Source: Acidobacteriota bacterium (GTDB lineage Bacteria; Acidobacteriota; Terriglobia; Terriglobales; Acidobacteriaceae). Taken from it: a stretch of DNA of 64,000 nt. The notes beneath the pieces are model-generated. The model saw nothing but the letters and a program-made list of their open reading frames with translations. It was not told the origin of the DNA and did not search any database. The translations under genes and the position numbers were made by a program. The stretch covers positions 1-64,000 of the forward strand of contig JARLGJ010000038.1 in assembly GCA_031296105.1 (NCBI GenBank). Reading direction: 5' to 3'. Positions 44,399 to 59,632 of the stretch are shown piece by piece (positions within the stretch are counted from its first letter, which is position 1; every line of letters begins with the position of its first letter).

Positions 44399-45028
44399 TT
44401 ATTTCCGGTGAGTCTTCTTCTCCGCGGAGGCCTTTTCGGCCGGGAGCTGTGCCTTTACATGTTCGATGGTCTCGAACAGCTTGGCGCGCTCGGTGATTTC
44501 CACCGGAGGCACCTGGGGCGAGTTTGTAACCACCCAGATGGTCGGCGTAAGGTGCACGTTCAAGTTGCGCCCCACCACGGTATCGGCCTCTACTTTGGCG
44601 CGCAGAGAGCCGTCGGGATCGTAGAACGCTGGCAGCGCCGTGCGGTGCGCACCGGCAAAGCGGTCGGCCCACTGGCGAAGGTTGGCTTTGAAGATCTGCT
44701 GCTGGTTGGCAAAGATGTACTGGCGGAACTCCTCGCCCAACTGCGGATTGACCTTGTCAAAGTAGCGCGCCATGATGTGCGCTTCCTTGCTCCAGGGATG
44801 GTTGGGAATGACGAAGTCGTGGCGTACCAGTGCCACGCCGTAATCGCGCACGGCCTGTACCAGCGTTGGGTCGGCCGTGGCGCAGGCCGGACATTCCAGA
44901 TCTTCAAACACCACCAGCGCCATGCGGTGGCCTGCCGGAGGTTGCAGCGCGCTCGACGGGCCGGCCGCCCAGGCCGTGCCCAAGGACATCGCCAGCACTG
45001 CAATCAACGTCAATAACTTGATCTTCAT
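44399..45028 (-). CDS. Exported thioredoxin-fold (DsbA-like) protein, CPAC motif
   Basis: 209 residues. Signal peptide of about 21 (MKIKLLTLIAVLAMSLG...). DsbA-type domain with active site ECPACAT near residues 45-50, then a helical insert and the cis-Pro segment VHLTPTIWV. It is shorter than the 34-kb DsbA-like lipoprotein and closely similar in layout to the next gene upstream (CPDC), which overlaps it by four bases. Likely a periplasmic disulfide oxidoreductase; the redox role is inferred. Confidence 0.82.
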   Translation of the reverse strand: MKIKLLTLIAVLAMSLGTAWAAGPSSALQPPAGHRMALVVFEDLECPACATADPTLVQAVRDYGVALVRHDFVIPNHPWSKEAHIMARYFDKVNPQLGEEFRQYIFANQQQIFKANLRQWADRFAGAHRTALPAFYDPDGSLRAKVEADTVVGRNLNVHLTPTIWVVTNSPQVPPVEITERAKLFETIEHVKAQLPAEKASAEKKTHRK

Positions 45029-45690
45029 CGCTTTGTCTCCCCCTTGGCCGGCGTCTCCGCCGCCTTCAACTGTTCGATCATGGAAAATAACTTGTCGCGG
45101 TCGAGCGTCTCAATGAAAGGAGCTCCACGCTGACTGGTACTGACTACAAACACGGTAGGCGTGTGAATGATGCCCGCCTTCTGACCAAGGACAAAATCCG
45201 CCTGCACCAGCTTGGCCAGTTCGCCCCGCGGATCGATCTTTTCCGGAAGTTCCAGGCCGTGCTGATCGGCAAAGCGTTCGGCCATGCCGCGCAGGTTCTG
45301 TTTGTTGATGGAGCTTTGATTGGCGAACACCCAGCGACGGAATTCCTCGCCGAGAGGGAGCTTTTTGGCCCCGTCCTTTACCGCCGCGTCCTGCGTGTCA
45401 AAGTAACGTGCCAGCACGTGAGCTTCAAAGCTCCAGTTGTGCATGGGCAGCGAAAAATCAAAGCGCACCAGAGGGATGTTGTACTTGGCGCAGGCCTCTT
45501 CCAACAGCGGCTCCGCGTCGGCGCAGTCGGGGCATTGCAGATCCTCAAAGGTAAGGATGGCCACCTGCGCTCCCCTTGGCGGGCGCAGCGCGCTAGTGTC
45601 TCCCGTGGGCTTAACCGCTCCGGCAAACAGCAGCACGGGTGTAATCAGCAGTGCCAGCAGCGCTAGGCTACGCAGCATCATCGGCCGCAT
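45025..45690 (-). CDS. Exported thioredoxin-fold (DsbA-like) protein, CPDC motif
   Basis: 221 residues if started at the ATG at 45690 (alternatives 45681 and 45678). Signal peptide of about 27, then DLQCPDCADAEPLL with the CPDC active site. The following SLPMHNWSFEAHVLARYFD matches the paralogue's IPNHPWSKEAHIMARYFD, showing an ancient tandem duplication. GIIHTPTVFVV is the cis-Pro loop. Stop and downstream start overlap as ATGA, so translation is probably coupled. Confidence 0.82.
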   Translation of the reverse strand: MRPMMLRSLALLALLITPVLLFAGAVKPTGDTSALRPPRGAQVAILTFEDLQCPDCADAEPLLEEACAKYNIPLVRFDFSLPMHNWSFEAHVLARYFDTQDAAVKDGAKKLPLGEEFRRWVFANQSSINKQNLRGMAERFADQHGLELPEKIDPRGELAKLVQADFVLGQKAGIIHTPTVFVVSTSQRGAPFIETLDRDKLFSMIEQLKAAETPAKGETKR

Positions 45691-45899
45691 CCTTTCCCTG
45701 GCCCCCCGGCAGCCTTGCGGCGCCACAAGGGTGAGAACCTTTTCCTGCTTCATCATAGACGATGCCCGCGGCATCACGCATCCGGAGGATTGCTATTCCG
45801 AATGCGTTCTGGAGGGCAGCGAATCTTCCGCCGCGTCTCAAAATCGGGCGCCGCCCAATAAAAAAAGGCGCCGGGCTTTCGCTCAACGCCAAAATAATT

Positions 45900-45943
45900 A
45901 GGAGGTTATGCCCGATAGACGGACCTGCGGGAAAAGGGTTAGC
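45900..45943 (+). repeat. Intergenic motif copy A
   Basis: AGGAGGTT at 45900, GATAGACG at 45914, then CCTGCGGGAAAAGGGTTAGC to 45943. The same order with similar spacing occurs in copy B. A GC hairpin lies about 25 bases upstream. Confidence 0.7.
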
Positions 45944-46058
45944 AAAGGACGGGGAATCGCTAGCTGAAAATAATCGGACTGGGAGGCAGGGATGCGGCTG
46001 GAGCGCAAAACTACTTCCCCCCAAAAAATAGAGCGCGAGTTAGGCTCGCGCTTCTGAA

Positions 46059-46107
46059 AGGAGGTTCGTTACACACTGATAGACGTGCCTGGCGTAAAAG
46101 GGTAAGC
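46059..46107 (+). repeat. Intergenic motif copy B
   Basis: AGGAGGTT at 46059, GATAGACG at 46078, then CCTGGCGTAAAAGGGTAAGC to 46107. The hairpin 46032-46050 lies just before it. It may be a structured leader RNA of ispE or a small RNA. Confidence 0.7.
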
Positions 46108-46180
46108 GGCGGGCAGAATAAATTTTCGTGTTCCCTCCCGCGCACCGGGTGCGGTTGCCGCTCTAGTAGAATGAAGCGGT

Positions 46181-47203
46181 ATGGCCGTCACCGTCCGATC
46201 CTTCGCCAAAATCAACCTGGGCCTGTCGATTGGCCCGGCGCGCCCTGATCGCTTTCACGCCTTGGAGACGGTGTACCAGACCGTTTCCGTGCATGACCTG
46301 ATTCACGTGGAAGCCGCCTCCGGCGATGGAATCGAGATACGCTGCCAGAATCCCGCGGTGCCCTGTGGCGCGACCAATACCTGCTACCGCGTGGCCGAGC
46401 GCATGATGCGCTTTTTGGGGCGCAAGGCGGAGCTGACGATCACCATTGATAAGCACCTGCCGGTGCAGGGCGGACTGGGGGCTGGTTCGGCCAACGCCGT
46501 GGCCACCATCTTTGCCCTGGAGCGCGAGTTAGGCCAGCCTCTGCCGGCCGCCGAGCGCCTGCGCATCGCCGCCGAGGTCGGGTCGGACCTTCCACTGTTC
46601 CTGCTGGGAGGTACGGTTCTGGGCGTGGGGCGCGGCGAGGAAGTCTATCCTTTGCAAGATCTTCCGGCAATTCCCTGCCTGCTGATAACGCCTCCGGTGG
46701 CGGTCAGCACGCCGCAGGCGTTTCGCGATTGGGACGCACTGGTGGCGCGCGAGGCAGAAGTTTCCGCGTGCGCTGCTCAGGCAGGGGCTGACGCGACGCA
46801 AGAGGGGCATTTGACGGCCCCAGCGGCCTCCGTTAAACTAAATAAGTTCAGCCTCTCGGCATTTGAGTGGCTGAGCCACCTGAATAAATCCGGTGTTCCC
46901 GTTGAGACAGACGGGGACCGGGCCGAGACTCCGCTTCTCGACCTCGTCCGTGCCGGGATAGAGAACGATTTCGAAAGAGTCGTCTTTCCTCAGTATCCCG
47001 AATTGCGTGACGTGAAGCGAAGACTCGAGCGTGAAGGCGCGGATTATGCCTCGCTCTCGGGATCGGGCTCAACGATGTACGGTTTGTTCCGTACCCGTGA
47101 GTGTGCCGTACAGGCTGCTGAAAAGCTCAGCGCGGAAGGCTTGTCCGTCACGATTGCCGAGACGCTTACGCGTTGCGAGTATCGCGCGCAGAGGTTTGTG
47201 TAG
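46181..47203 (+). CDS. ispE: 4-(cytidine 5'-diphospho)-2-C-methyl-D-erythritol kinase
   Basis: 340-residue GHMP kinase of the methylerythritol-phosphate isoprenoid pathway. AKINLGL at the N-terminus, the phosphate loop PVQGGLGAGSANAVA near 95-108, and the late LSGSGSTMYGLF are standard. It is longer than the E. coli enzyme (283) because of an insertion near 180-235 (EVSACAAQAGADATQ...). It begins the ispE-tRNA-prs-rplY-pth group. Confidence 0.94.
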   Translation: MAVTVRSFAKINLGLSIGPARPDRFHALETVYQTVSVHDLIHVEAASGDGIEIRCQNPAVPCGATNTCYRVAERMMRFLGRKAELTITIDKHLPVQGGLGAGSANAVATIFALERELGQPLPAAERLRIAAEVGSDLPLFLLGGTVLGVGRGEEVYPLQDLPAIPCLLITPPVAVSTPQAFRDWDALVAREAEVSACAAQAGADATQEGHLTAPAASVKLNKFSLSAFEWLSHLNKSGVPVETDGDRAETPLLDLVRAGIENDFERVVFPQYPELRDVKRRLEREGADYASLSGSGSTMYGLFRTRECAVQAAEKLSAEGLSVTIAETLTRCEYRAQRFV

Positions 47204-47221: not shown

Positions 47222-47295
47222 TGGGCGGTAGACTAATGGTAGGTCAAGTGCCTTTGGAGCACTTCGTCCAGGTTCGAATCCTGGCCGCCCAGCCA
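47222..47295 (+). tRNA. tRNA-Gln (TTG anticodon)
   Basis: Cloverleaf is complete: acceptor TGGGCGG/CCGCCCA, D-arm, anticodon stem AGTGC/GCACT with loop CTTTGGA (anticodon TTG), T-arm CCAGG-TTCGAAT-CCTGG, discriminator G, and an encoded CCA. It sits between ispE and prs and is the only tRNA seen in the window. Confidence 0.97.
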
Positions 47296-51405: not shown

Positions 51406-51527
51406 TTATTTTGAACTGCAAAATAGATTGCTAACGGACGCGCTTCTTTTCCGTCCAACTCCGTGTAAGGCGAGCCCTGCCAAGGGGCAGGCGGAGCGGA
51501 CAGAGGAGCGGTCCCCGGGAGAGAACG

Positions 51528-52121
51528 GTGGGGCAAGGCTCCAGTCAGGTGAATGACGCCGAACTGATCCGCGCGGCGCAGCAGGGTGACAAGGCTGCGT
51601 TCGAGGAACTGGTGCGGCAGTACGATCAGCCGGTGCTCCGGCTGGCGCTTCACCTGACCGGCAATGAGGCAGAGGCGCAGGACATCTATCAGGAAGCATT
51701 CCTCAAGGTGTACCGCAACCTCACCGGTTTCCGCTTCGAGTGTTCTTTCTATACTTGGATTTACCGCATCGTCAGCAACCTGTGCATGGATCATCTGCGG
51801 CGCAGGCAGGTGCGCAAGGAGGATTCTCCGGTACGCACTGACGAAGACGGCACGGAGGTCAATCTGCTGGACCAGGTTGCCGACGACCGCGCCGGCGCCA
51901 GTCCGGAACAGGATCTGATGCGGCGCGAGCTGGGCAAGCGGATTGCGAAGGCCCTTACGGTGCTCAATCCGCGGGAACGCATGGTTTTTGAGATGAAGCA
52001 CTACCAGGGTCTTAAGCTGCGCACCATTGGCGAGGCCCTGAACACAACGGAAGAGACGGCCAAGAACACTCTCTTCCGCGCCACGCAGAAGTTACGGGCG
52101 GCGCTGGCCGATTTGAAGTAG
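51528..52121 (+). CDS. RNA polymerase ECF-type sigma factor
   Basis: 197 residues from GTG 51528 (GGGAGAG upstream). Sigma-70 region 2 (about 22-92: AAFEELVRQYDQPVLRLALHLTGN..., FYTWIYRIVSNLCMDHLRRR) and region 4 (about 135-190: NPRERMVFEMKHYQGLKLRTIGEALNTTEETAKNTLFRA). No known group is assigned. The zinc-finger anti-sigma-like gene follows 53 bp later and is probably its regulator. Confidence 0.95.
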   Translation: MGQGSSQVNDAELIRAAQQGDKAAFEELVRQYDQPVLRLALHLTGNEAEAQDIYQEAFLKVYRNLTGFRFECSFYTWIYRIVSNLCMDHLRRRQVRKEDSPVRTDEDGTEVNLLDQVADDRAGASPEQDLMRRELGKRIAKALTVLNPRERMVFEMKHYQGLKLRTIGEALNTTEETAKNTLFRATQKLRAALADLK

Positions 52122-52174
52122 CGGCGAGTCCGCGGCAGGCAGCAACGGCGAACCTTCGCCGGCAGGTGAGCGTT

Positions 52175-53086
52175 ATGAATTGCGATTGGGTGCGGGACAA
52201 TATCGCGCTGTATCTCTACCAGGAACTGGGCGACGACGCGCGTCATGAACTGGAGGGCCATGTGGCCCGCTGTGCTGAATGCGCCGCCGAGTTGGATGAG
52301 CTGCGCCGCCTGCATGCGGCCATGAATGCCGCTCCGCAGTTTGAGGTCACACCCAATCTGCTGGCCTCTTCGCGTCTGCGCCTTTCGGCTGCCCTGGCGG
52401 AAGAACCCGCGCGCCGCGCGTGGCGCTGGGCGCTCGACCCCTTGGCGCTGATGCGTCAATTGCGTTTCTCTCCTGCCCTGGCGGCCGTGCTCCTGATGGT
52501 GGGCTTCGGCGGCGGCGCAGGCATTACCTACCGCATGATGGCCGCGCGCGGCGAGGTGGCCAACACGCAGGAGGCCTCCATCGCCGGCATTCGCAACATT
52601 GTGCAGGAGCCTGGCACGAATCGCGTCCGCATCGATTACGAGCGCGCCCTGCCGGAGACGGTGCAAGGTTCCGTCAGCGATCCTCAAATTCAAGCGCTGC
52701 TGGTGATGGCCTCGCGCAGCACCGCCAATTCCGGCCTGCGCATGGACTCCGTGGCTCTGTTGCGGCAGCAGCCGGATGATCCCGCGGTACGCGAGAGCCT
52801 GGTGTTTTCGCTGCGTTCGGACAGCAATCCCGGTGTGCGCCTGAAGGCCGAAGAAGCGCTGGCGCCGATGGTGAAGGATGACCTGCGCGTGCGCAATGCC
52901 ATGGTGGAGGCGCTCCTGAACGACAGCAATCCCGGTGTGCGTTCCGGGGCGCTGAAAGCCTTGTCCAGCGTCCCCGGCGATACCGGCGTGCAGCAGGCGC
53001 TGCAGCAACTGGCCAAGGAAGATCCCAACGAGTACATTCGTCAAGAATCGTCGCACATCCTGGCCATGGAGAAGAGCTCCCGCTAA
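52175..53086 (+). CDS. Anti-sigma-factor-like membrane protein with HEAT-like repeats
   Basis: 303 residues. The ATG at 52175 is preferred because AGGTGAG ends just upstream; the GTG at 52166 is also open. N-terminal zinc-finger anti-sigma motif (Cys3, His29, Cys33, Cys36), a transmembrane segment (about 98-119), and a periplasmic part with 34-residue HEAT-like repeats (SDSNPGVRLKAEEAL and NDSNPGVRSGALKAL, sharing an exact 20-bp DNA repeat at 52820-52839 and 52922-52941). Presumably holds the ECF sigma factor and senses the envelope through the repeats. Confidence 0.85.
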   Translation: MNCDWVRDNIALYLYQELGDDARHELEGHVARCAECAAELDELRRLHAAMNAAPQFEVTPNLLASSRLRLSAALAEEPARRAWRWALDPLALMRQLRFSPALAAVLLMVGFGGGAGITYRMMAARGEVANTQEASIAGIRNIVQEPGTNRVRIDYERALPETVQGSVSDPQIQALLVMASRSTANSGLRMDSVALLRQQPDDPAVRESLVFSLRSDSNPGVRLKAEEALAPMVKDDLRVRNAMVEALLNDSNPGVRSGALKALSSVPGDTGVQQALQQLAKEDPNEYIRQESSHILAMEKSSR

Positions 53087-54292
53087 ATGAATCCCAGCGT
53101 GAAGCACATTCGAGGTGCGGTGGCAGCGGTGCTGCTGTTGGCGGCGCTGGCCCTGCCGTGCCTGGCGGGCGTAAAGCGTGAGATGAATGTAACGCGCGAA
53201 GGCTCGGGCTGGGTGCAGGAAACCGCCGGCCCGCTGGCCGGACGCAAGGCCCTGCAAGTCAATCACTTCATCGGCAGCGTGCAGATCGTCACCGGGGCCA
53301 AGTCTGCCGGATACCGCCTGCGCCTGCATTCGCCGGAAACGGACGAACAGGCGGCGCGGCGCGATTTTGCGGACTATCGCTTCAACATTGCACGCACCCG
53401 CGAAGCGGATACTCTGCAGCCGAACAATGCACTCGATCTCAAACTGCGCGCCGAACTCATCGTGCAGATTCCCGCGTCGGTCGAGCAGGTGCATGTGGAT
53501 ACTCTCGGCGGCAAGGTTACCGTGCACGGCCATGTCCGGCATCTCGACCTTCGGGCGCATGGCGGCGACATCGAGCTGGATGAGGCTGACCTGCTACATG
53601 CCATCGCCGTCGGCGGCTCCGTCACGGTAAACCGCAGTCTGGGAGATTCCTACATCCGCAGCGAGGGCGGAGAGATTCGCGTGGAAGCCTCCATGGGCGA
53701 GCTGCAGATTGCCTCGCTCGGCGGCAATATTCATCTGAACACCATCGCCAATGGGCGAGTGGAATCCGGCGGCGGCAACATCGACATCACACACTGTGAC
53801 GGCGCGCTGCTCGTACGCAACCGTGGGGGCGGCAACATCAACCTCGGCGAGATGGACGGCGACGTTCAGGCGGAGACCGGCGGTGGCAGCATTCGCATCG
53901 GCGTGGCCCACGGCATGGTGGCCGTCAGCACCGCCATGGGAGACATCGAGATCTGGAAGCTGTCGCAGGGCGCCATCGCCCACACCGGCATGGGCAGCAT
54001 CACCGCGGAGTTCATCGCTCCCCGGGCCGCCATGCGCAAGTCGGAGCTGGTCACCTCGATGGGCAACATCGTGGTGTACTTCAACGCCAACAGTGGGGCG
54101 AATGTCCGGGCCATCACCGGCGCCAGTCCCAGCAAGCGCATCGTCAACGAATTTCCCGAACTGCGTCTGGCCAATGGAATGGCGCAGTACGGACCGCGCA
54201 GCATTTTTGCCGAGGGCACCATTCACGGCGGCGGAGCGGACCTGTTCCTGCGCACCATGGTGGGGCAAATCGAATTGCGCAACGCGCGTTAA
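53087..54292 (+). CDS. Exported DUF4097-like (beta-helix repeat) protein
   Basis: 401 residues; the ATG directly follows the anti-sigma stop codon with no gap, so translation is coupled. Signal peptide of about 27 (AVAAVLLLAALALPCLAG). Short repeats of the form GG.I.V....G.I run through the C-terminal half (GGNIHLNTI, GGGNIDITH, GGGNINLGEM, GGGSIRIGV), typical of DUF4097 beta-helix proteins seen beside ECF sigma factors. Role unknown; adhesin-like or sensing. Confidence 0.8.
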   Translation: MNPSVKHIRGAVAAVLLLAALALPCLAGVKREMNVTREGSGWVQETAGPLAGRKALQVNHFIGSVQIVTGAKSAGYRLRLHSPETDEQAARRDFADYRFNIARTREADTLQPNNALDLKLRAELIVQIPASVEQVHVDTLGGKVTVHGHVRHLDLRAHGGDIELDEADLLHAIAVGGSVTVNRSLGDSYIRSEGGEIRVEASMGELQIASLGGNIHLNTIANGRVESGGGNIDITHCDGALLVRNRGGGNINLGEMDGDVQAETGGGSIRIGVAHGMVAVSTAMGDIEIWKLSQGAIAHTGMGSITAEFIAPRAAMRKSELVTSMGNIVVYFNANSGANVRAITGASPSKRIVNEFPELRLANGMAQYGPRSIFAEGTIHGGGADLFLRTMVGQIELRNAR

Positions 54293-58294: not shown

Positions 58295-59632
58295 ATGCAG
58301 AAAATTCTGGTGGACAACCTGGGTTCCTGGAACATTGGCGACCTTGCCATGCTTGAGGCAAGCGTGGAGGAATTCCTGAGCCTGGCTCCCACGGTGGAAC
58401 TGCACCTGGTGGACCGCGTTCCGCTTCCCACGAAGATATGGGAACTGCCGCGTGTCCGGCGTACACCCAATGTCGAGGTCAAGACGCGCGATCTGAACCG
58501 CCTGGCCATCCTGGACAACAGTCCCCTGCTGTGGCGGCTCGCCGCCTATTATCGGAATCATTTGCTGGCGTCGTTGTTCGAACGGCTTGGACGTCAGATC
58601 GCTCCCGGGAAACTGATGGTGGACACGGCCGCGGGGCGGGTCTCTCTGGAACGGTATTGCGAAGACTACGACGCCTTCTATATCTTCGGCGGCGGCAACA
58701 TCAACGACGTCTTCCCCGCGGAGCTTCTCCGCAAGTGTGCGCTGATGCTCTGCTTTGCCGCGCAAGGCAAGCCGGTCATCCTTACGGGTCAACAAATTGG
58801 TCCCTTCCAATCCCAGGCCGGCCGCGAGGTGGCGGCGCGCGCGCTGCGTGAAACGGCTTTCGCCGGCGTGCGTGAGCCGCTCGATTCGGCGCGCTATTGC
58901 CGCGAGGCAGGACTTTCCGAAGAGCGTTACGCGGTGATGGGCGACGATTCGTTTGGCCTGCCGCAGGCGAGTGAAGAAGATGTTTCCCGCTTGCTAGCCC
59001 GCTATGGCGTGGAGGAGAACAAGTTCATCGCCCTCAACGTGCGAGTCACCAGCTACCTGCCGGAGACGCAGCGTCACCTCCAGCAGATAGCCGCCTTCGT
59101 CTCGGCGCTGCTCGATGAGTTTCAGCTTCCCGCGCTGGTCGTTCCCGTGGTCATGGACGGCCCGGAGAGCGACATTCTTGGCGGGCGCAAACTGGCTTCG
59201 CTCATTGGCGCCGGCAGAGTTCGTGTGATGGACGCGGAAGGCGTTACGCCGGTGAGCGCTCGTGGCGTGTTAGGGCGCGCCTTTGCCGCGCTAGGTACTT
59301 CGTATCACTTCTGCACGTTCTCCTGCGCGGAGGGCGTGCCCGCGGTCTGCCTGTATGATGGCAGCTACTACAGTCAGAAAGCCCTGGGTTTGGCGGCTTT
59401 TTGGCGAGTTGAGCGCCTGTTGCTGCCGATGGGTGAGTTGAACGATCCGGAGGCAGTCCGCCGCGTCAGCGGTGTGTTCCGCGATGCAGCGTTGCGCGAA
59501 AAACTCAAGCGGCGGGCACTGGAGTCCTTGCAGGATTGGCACGCGGCCTTTCGCCAGGCATTGCAGGCAGCACGGCTTCCGCTTGCTGCCGTGCAGGTGC
59601 GGGTAATTGCAGGCGAACATGACAGGGACTAA
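58295..59632 (+). CDS. Polysaccharide pyruvyl transferase family protein
   Basis: 445 residues; the ATG at 58295 has GAGGGG four to nine bases upstream (TTG 58283 also open). DNLGSWNIGDLAMLEA at the N-terminus and FYIFGGGNINDVFPAELLRK, GQQIGPFQSQAGREVA, GVREPLDSARYCREAG and GTSYHFCTFSCAEGVP are the family's order of motifs. Transfers pyruvyl groups as ketals or related moieties to polysaccharides; could be a relative with another donor. It overlaps the next gene by 14 bp. Confidence 0.87.
   Translation: MQKILVDNLGSWNIGDLAMLEASVEEFLSLAPTVELHLVDRVPLPTKIWELPRVRRTPNVEVKTRDLNRLAILDNSPLLWRLAAYYRNHLLASLFERLGRQIAPGKLMVDTAAGRVSLERYCEDYDAFYIFGGGNINDVFPAELLRKCALMLCFAAQGKPVILTGQQIGPFQSQAGREVAARALRETAFAGVREPLDSARYCREAGLSEERYAVMGDDSFGLPQASEEDVSRLLARYGVEENKFIALNVRVTSYLPETQRHLQQIAAFVSALLDEFQLPALVVPVVMDGPESDILGGRKLASLIGAGRVRVMDAEGVTPVSARGVLGRAFAALGTSYHFCTFSCAEGVPAVCLYDGSYYSQKALGLAAFWRVERLLLPMGELNDPEAVRRVSGVFRDAALREKLKRRALESLQDWHAAFRQALQAARLPLAAVQVRVIAGEHDRD

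What the first reader, a model, noticed from the sequence alone, without database searches (positions are those of the whole stretch)
45691..46180. Two copies of an unexplained 50-nt motif with hairpins in a divergent promoter region
AGGAGGTT - GATAGACG - CCTG(C/G)... - AAAAGGGT(T/A)AGC occurs at 45900-45943 and 46059-46107, each preceded by a GC-rich hairpin. Order and near-constant spacing suggest a structured RNA or tandem regulatory unit upstream of ispE. I recognise no known riboswitch in it.
Basis: seen in the sequence. Interest (0 to 1): 0.55.

Follow-up and report, generated by a model that had tools for sequence, protein, structure and literature searches.

The report
Tandem small RNAs under stress sigma

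Summary
On the minus strand each copy reads GCT(A/T)ACC-N15-CGTCTA, 10 or 15 nt, CCTCCT, hairpin, T6-7: an ECF-sigma-type promoter, an anti-Shine-Dalgarno stretch and an intrinsic terminator, i.e. two tandem genes for ~55-nt RNAs. A third copy follows a tolC-family gene elsewhere in the genome; two same-genus genomes have one copy at each site (seven in all). A model built without window sequence finds both window copies (E 5.9e-7, 1.7e-4) and nothing else in the window. The same motif precedes an ECF sigma/anti-sigma operon in the window (motif 51430, sigma 51528-52121); it lies upstream of that sigma at 23 of 29 testable loci (own included; background 1 in 197,396 bases), and of none of the other 15 sigma70-region-2 genes of this genome. 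The fourth same-genus genome lacks sigma and RNA. Hfq is present. Best reading: an ECF-sigma-dependent sRNA family, working like RybB/MicA or FoxI/FoxJ, repressing mRNAs at ribosome-binding sites. Transcription, sigma dependence and targets are inferred. No Rfam family matches; found in 3 of 398 family genomes. New member of a known kind, apparently in a new lineage.

The parts
45916..45943 (-). Promoter of sRNA copy 1: GCTAACC (45943-45937), N15, CGTCTA (45921-45916); ECF-sigma type
45860..45912 (-). sRNA copy 1 (predicted, ~53 nt; start inferred from promoter, end from terminator)
45900..45905 (-). CCTCCT anti-Shine-Dalgarno stretch of copy 1
45860..45890 (-). Intrinsic terminator of copy 1: GGCGTTGAGCGAAAGCCCGGCGCC then T7
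   Evidence: one A-C mismatch; not listed by the simple scan
46080..46107 (-). Promoter of sRNA copy 2: GCTTACC, N15, CGTCTA
46023..46077 (-). sRNA copy 2 (predicted, ~55 nt)
46059..46064 (-). CCTCCT anti-Shine-Dalgarno stretch of copy 2
46023..46052 (-). Intrinsic terminator of copy 2: AGCGCGAG/CTCGCGCT stem, then CTATTTTTT
45025..45681 (-). Thioredoxin_4 (DsbA-like) gene with signal-peptide-like N-terminus, downstream of both sRNAs on the same strand
44399..45028 (-). Second Thioredoxin_4 gene, overlapping the first by 4 nt
46181..47203 (+). ispE, divergent neighbour
51430..51457 (+). Same promoter motif (GCTAAC, N16, CGTCCA) upstream of the ECF sigma gene
51528..52121 (+). ECF sigma factor (Sigma70_r2 and r4), likely the one that drives the sRNAs
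52166..53086 (+). Putative anti-sigma factor: zf-HC2 domain plus HEAT repeats
53087..54292 (+). DUF4097 protein, third gene of the sigma operon

Best explanation
Each copy is a complete minus-strand gene for a ~55-nt non-coding RNA: an ECF-sigma promoter (GCTnACc-N15/16-CGTCyA), a short 5' segment carrying a mostly unpaired CCUCCU, and an intrinsic terminator. Tandem copies c1 and c2 sit between ispE and a dsb-like gene pair; a third paralogue sits right after a tolC-family gene. The ECF sigma factor at 51528-52121, whose own promoter has the same motif, most likely transcribes them when its zf-HC2 anti-sigma lets it go (envelope or redox stress would fit the Dsb-like and TolC neighbours). The RNAs then probably act, with Hfq, by pairing CCUCC plus neighbouring bases with ribosome-binding sites, repressing envelope or other mRNAs while the sigma activates genes. 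Shown by sequence: layout, conservation, paralogues, shared promoter motif, terminator potential, presence of Hfq. Inferred: transcription, sigma dependence, the stress signal, Hfq binding and targets.
For: Seven copies with the same order of parts: c1, c2 and a tolC-side copy in this genome, two each in G001 and G002. All seven have a strong hairpin with unlike stem sequences; six of seven are followed by T6-7 (the G002 tolC copy has only T4), against 60 of 1000 random 80-nt stretches with a terminator by my lax rule. R3, built without window sequence, finds c1 and c2. R1 and R2 give full-length matches only in G000, G001, G002. Strict motif GCT[ATC]AC-N15..17-CGTC[CT] lies within 400 nt upstream of the sigma gene at 23 of 30 loci, the window's own included (29 testable: L264 has no upstream flank), with 1 background hit in 197,396 bases. 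In this genome only 1 of 16 sigma70_r2 genes has it upstream, the window's. Genome-wide, pattern GCTNACN16CGTCY has 9 matches; four are the three sRNA promoters and the sigma promoter. AAC/CGT is the general ECF promoter signature (PMC8103513, passages). G003, the fourth same-genus genome, lacks the sigma (E<=1e-40) and the RNA. Hfq is in all four.
Against: No transcript data. The sigma is widespread in the relatives (28 of 41 genomes), the RNA is not (3 of 398), so the RNA is at best a recent addition to its regulon. R3 missed the tolC-side copy of this genome at E<=10, so that copy rests on a pattern match, on R2 (which includes it) and on synteny. The CCUCC is only moderately free in some folds (0.55-0.98 unpaired). 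The window-only target scan gave no convincing target; c2 paired no better than shuffles. All copies are followed by a same-strand gene, so a leader or attenuator role is not excluded. The independent evidence for the RNA comes from only two other genomes.
Confidence: 0.78

Rival explanations
1. The units are promoter-plus-attenuator leaders: the ECF promoter makes a short RNA that usually stops at the terminator, and regulated read-through feeds the downstream same-strand genes (dsb pair here; methylmalonyl-CoA mutase or a glycosyltransferase after the tolC copies).
For: Every copy has a same-strand gene downstream; the dsb genes are plausible members of an envelope-stress regulon, and a Thioredoxin_4/DSBA gene in G142 has the same promoter type directly upstream.
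Against: Downstream genes differ between copies while the RNA unit is kept; two complete units with two terminators in tandem are hard to explain as one attenuator; dsb1 has its own conserved CGTCTATnAT element downstream of c1's terminator; no antiterminator fold was seen, though only minimum-energy and centroid folds were looked at.
Confidence: 0.13
2. One reading: a structured RNA or riboswitch-like leader of ispE on the + strand.
For: Position upstream of ispE, hairpins, ordered blocks.
Against: A-runs precede the hairpins and no T-run follows on the + strand; the blocks are ECF promoter elements in reverse; tolC-side copies have no ispE; no Rfam family.
Confidence: 0.03
3. A short + strand peptide gene: AGGAGG as Shine-Dalgarno, ATG a few bases on.
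For: 4 of 7 copies have an ATG 2-9 nt after the AGGAGG block on the + strand, e.g. MPDRRTCGKRVSKGRGIAS in c1 (sequence).
Against: c2 and two of the three tolC-side copies have no ATG there, and the third stops after six codons; the residue likeness follows from the conserved promoter letters.
Confidence: 0.02
4. Only promoters are real: ECF promoters for the dsb genes, with incidental hairpins.
For: The promoter motif is the best supported part.
Against: CCTCCT is invariant in 7 of 7 copies and a hairpin follows in 7 of 7; the tolC-side copies have no dsb gene directly next to them.
Confidence: 0.04

Closest known systems
RybB / MicA, sigmaE-dependent sRNAs of enterobacteria (PMC1804206, abstract read)
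   Same: Short sRNA genes under an ECF sigma in an envelope-stress regulon; repressor arm of the sigma (for ours: inferred).
   Different: No sequence relation found (no Rfam match); ours look shorter, carry CCUCCU near the 5' end, occur as tandem and dispersed paralogues, and targets are unknown.
FoxI / FoxJ, sigmaE-dependent sRNAs of Fusobacterium nucleatum (PMC11005410, passages read)
   Same: Non-coding arm of an ECF sigma outside Proteobacteria, recognised there too by common -10/-35 motifs of the sRNA genes and rpoE; C-rich seed.
   Different: FoxJ is ~156 nt; other phylum; theirs are experimentally proven.
alpha-r14 / NfeR1 sRNAs of rhizobia (PMC10746234, passages read)
   Same: Conserved CCUCC-type anti-SD motifs in unpaired regions that silence mRNAs at the translation initiation region; stems vary in sequence.
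   Different: NfeR1 has three hairpins with three motifs and is controlled by LsrB and NtrC, not by an ECF sigma.
suhB / mmgR (Rfam RF00519)
   Same: Weak minus-strand match to c1 (17.7 bits), including the terminator and T-run.
   Different: Far below the 41-bit gathering score; not a member.

Membership tests
ECF-sigma-dependent sRNA (functional class) | Own promoter with the -35/-10 motif of an ECF sigma of the same genome | tested here: met
   same motif at c1, c2, tolC copy and the sigma's own promoter; 1 of 16 sigma70_r2 genes has it
ECF-sigma-dependent sRNA (functional class) | Short non-coding unit ending in an intrinsic terminator | tested here: met
   (prediction); no conserved ORF
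ECF-sigma-dependent sRNA (functional class) | Discrete transcript whose level depends on the sigma | not testable with these tools
   needs RNA-seq or northern blot with sigma deletion or induction
ECF-sigma-dependent sRNA (functional class) | Base-pairing repression of mRNAs, usually with Hfq | tested here: inconclusive
   Hfq genes present in 4 of 4 genomes; no convincing target in the window
suhB/mmgR (RF00519) | Score at or above the Rfam gathering score (41 bits) | tested here: not met
   17.7 bits, E 0.43
any Rfam 15 family, riboswitches included | Gathering-score match in the region | tested here: not met
   only a tRNA at 47222-47292 in the whole window
alpha-r14 / NfeR1 | Three hairpins each with an unpaired CCUCCUCCC | tested here: not met
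   one CCUCCU and one strong hairpin per copy

The most novel reading that the evidence does not exclude
A non-coding arm of an ECF stress regulon in Acidobacteria made of three ultra-short paralogous RNAs that act as mobile antisense copies of a ribosome-binding site: CCUCCU against the Shine-Dalgarno and, in 4 of 7 copies, CAU placed against the start codon. One sigma would thereby put a broad translational brake on genes with strong Shine-Dalgarno sequences during envelope stress.
Probability: 0.25. Interest if true: 0.65.

Novelty: new member of a known kind. Interest (0 to 1): 0.5.

Why it matters
If true, the arrangement in which an activator sigma gains a repressor arm through small RNAs, described in Proteobacteria and Fusobacteria, also exists in Acidobacteria, where few sRNAs are annotated (4 in the table of PMC9029176, passage seen). 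The sigma is widespread among the relatives while the RNAs were found in one genus only, with tandem and dispersed copies, so this would be a case for studying how sRNAs are recruited into a sigma regulon. It also gives a usable promoter definition (GCTnAC-N15..17-CGTCy) for that sigma in the family.

Tried and rejected
Rfam at gathering and at E<=10: nothing useful. Exact motif in 200 genomes of the class: chance level outside the own genome. A loose two-mismatch pattern in 61 relatives: fewer matches than controls, dropped. The one-mismatch promoter at C47:115664 is followed by a small ORF and a PilZ-like gene, no CCTCC-plus-terminator. Plasmid BLAST: no match. Pattern with CCTCC in 398 family genomes: 114 genomes with matches, and at least as many control matches. 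I fetched 20 of the listed places, chosen mainly for a T(A/G)GACG -10 and not GTCAGC, plus a few by eye. A T5 run follows in 2 of 20 (L338, the own-genome tolC copy, and L342, where by eye it does not follow a hairpin), so no member outside the genus was found this way; the other listed places were not looked at. Weak R1 and R2 hits in other genera look, by eye, like promoter-only matches; L351 has a T5 run downstream but no CCTCC. Peptide reading rejected (see rivals). The target search was limited to the window and weak. Literature: no paper with acidobacteri + small RNA + extracytoplasmic function; acidobacteri + sRNA + Hfq gave 9 papers, none on this subject by its title; the ten papers listed do not mention Acidobacteria.

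Full report
The observation. The sequence confirms both copies at 45900-45943 and 46059-46107. The combination AGGAGGTT...GATAGACG occurs exactly twice in the 3.45-Mb assembly, both here. The window shows no Rfam match except a tRNA, and in the region itself nothing near a gathering score.

The strand. On the + strand each hairpin is preceded by a run of A and not followed by T; on the minus strand each is a terminator. Read on the minus strand the blocks become GCT(A/T)ACC, 15 nt, CGTCTA, 10 or 15 nt, CCTCCT, hairpin, T6-7. AAC at -35 and CGT at -10 is the general signature of ECF sigma promoters (passages of PMC8103513). So each copy looks like a whole gene for an RNA of about 53-55 nt, transcribed away from ispE towards a pair of Thioredoxin_4 (DsbA-like) genes.

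Relatives. Two of three other genomes assigned to the genus, G001 and G002 (apparently CAINND01 and CAILAZ01, uncultured Acidobacteria bins), have one copy at the same ispE/dsb place and one directly 3' of a TolC-family gene (the G002 protein matches Pfam OEP; in G001 only the C-terminal end was on the contig and I read it by eye). The own genome also has the tolC-side copy, starting 3 nt after the tolC stop, found by pattern. That makes seven copies; GCT, a C three bases after it, CGTC and CCTCCT are among the invariant columns. Stems differ but all seven fold (-13.1 to -27.3 kcal/mol); six have a T6-7 tail, the G002 tolC copy only T4. As control, 60 of 1000 random 80-nt stretches of the window have a terminator by my lax rule.

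Model tests. R1 (five copies) searched in 120 relatives gave full-length matches only in G000, G001 and G002; one of them, the G002 tolC copy (E 0.0026), had not been used to build it. R2 (all seven) in 398 family genomes gave the seven known copies and no other full-length match; five weaker matches in other genera (E 0.002-0.05) cover the promoter columns and, in two, part of what follows. R3, built from G001 and G002 only, finds c1 (E 5.9e-7) and c2 (E 1.7e-4) and nothing else in the window at E<=10; it misses the own-genome tolC copy. Of 80 named IspE loci only L141 and L150, the same two genomes, hold the RNA. The dsb pair next to ispE is also confined to them: 4 of 95 IspE loci examined, from 2 genomes.

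The sigma factor. A promoter scan of the own genome hit window 51430-51457, upstream of an ECF sigma gene (51528-52121) followed by a zf-HC2/HEAT protein and a DUF4097 protein. Matches at E<=1e-40 are in 28 of 41 genomes searched, the own included. Of 31 matches 30 were available as loci; one (L264) ends at a contig end and cannot be tested. In 23 of the 30 the strict motif GCT[ATC]AC-N15..17-CGTC[CT] lies within 400 nt upstream, against one hit in the other 197,396 bases of the same loci and four, two of them the sRNAs, in 1,285,380 bases of IspE loci. In the own genome the motif stands within 700 nt upstream of 1 of 16 sigma70_r2 matches, the window's. Genome-wide there are nine matches to GCTNACN16CGTCY, four of which are the three RNA promoters and the sigma promoter. 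In the window itself the strict motif occurs four times: c1, c2, sigma, and one at 59257 minus that I did not follow. G003, the remaining same-genus genome, lacks the sigma and the RNA. That the sigma autoregulates and drives the RNAs is therefore well supported but inferred.

How it may work. Hfq genes are present in all four same-genus genomes. CCUCC is 0.55-0.98 unpaired in predicted folds. NfeR1-type RNAs silence mRNAs with such motifs (PMC10746234, passages); RybB and MicA (PMC1804206, abstract) and FoxI/FoxJ (PMC11005410, passages) are repressor arms of ECF sigmas. By analogy the RNAs here should repress translation of mRNAs during stress. In four of seven copies a CAU also lies where it could face a start codon; three have UGU there. 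A scan against 59 predicted initiation regions of the window gave no convincing target: c1 and c3 paired somewhat better than shuffled versions (means -11.0 v -9.3 and -12.9 v -11.1), c2 did not (-12.0 v -12.4).

What stays open. Each copy has a same-strand gene downstream (dsb, methylmalonyl-CoA mutase, glycosyltransferase), so read-through or attenuation is possible. The names mutase and glycosyltransferase are my reading of the translations, not from a family search. No transcript has been seen. Distribution is narrow (3 of 398) although the sigma is common, so the RNAs look like a recent addition to an older regulon.

Noticed in passing
window 45752-45761 (minus strand), and L046, L047: CGTCTATnAT is conserved just upstream of the first dsb-like gene in all three genomes, without a clear GCTnAC at the right distance; it may be a further promoter (ECF or housekeeping).
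   Followed up: partly
L139 1182-1229: In genome G142, another genus, the same promoter type (AACC, N15, CGTCCA) lies directly upstream of a Thioredoxin_4/DSBA protein: a candidate protein-coding member of the same regulon.
   Followed up: partly
L113, L116, L121, L353-L355: Further GCTnACC...CGTCTA promoter-like sites in other genera, apparently in front of protein genes; could define the sigma regulon across the family.
   Followed up: no
L337, L345, L346: ACTAAT-nn-ATTAGT-like palindrome shortly upstream of what looks like a BlaI/MecI-type repressor gene (label recalled from the translation); probably its operator, unrelated to the finding.
   Followed up: no
G000:C71:1469-1657 and G000:C39:28481-28669: The genome has two strong Hfq matches plus a weaker third.
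   Followed up: no
L080 1501-1528: One-mismatch copy of the promoter motif in the own genome, followed by a small ORF with a Shine-Dalgarno and then a PilZ-like gene (label recalled).
   Followed up: partly
window 59257 (minus strand): A fourth strict match to the promoter motif in the window (GCTCACC...CGTCC, N16-17 class); context not examined.
   Followed up: no
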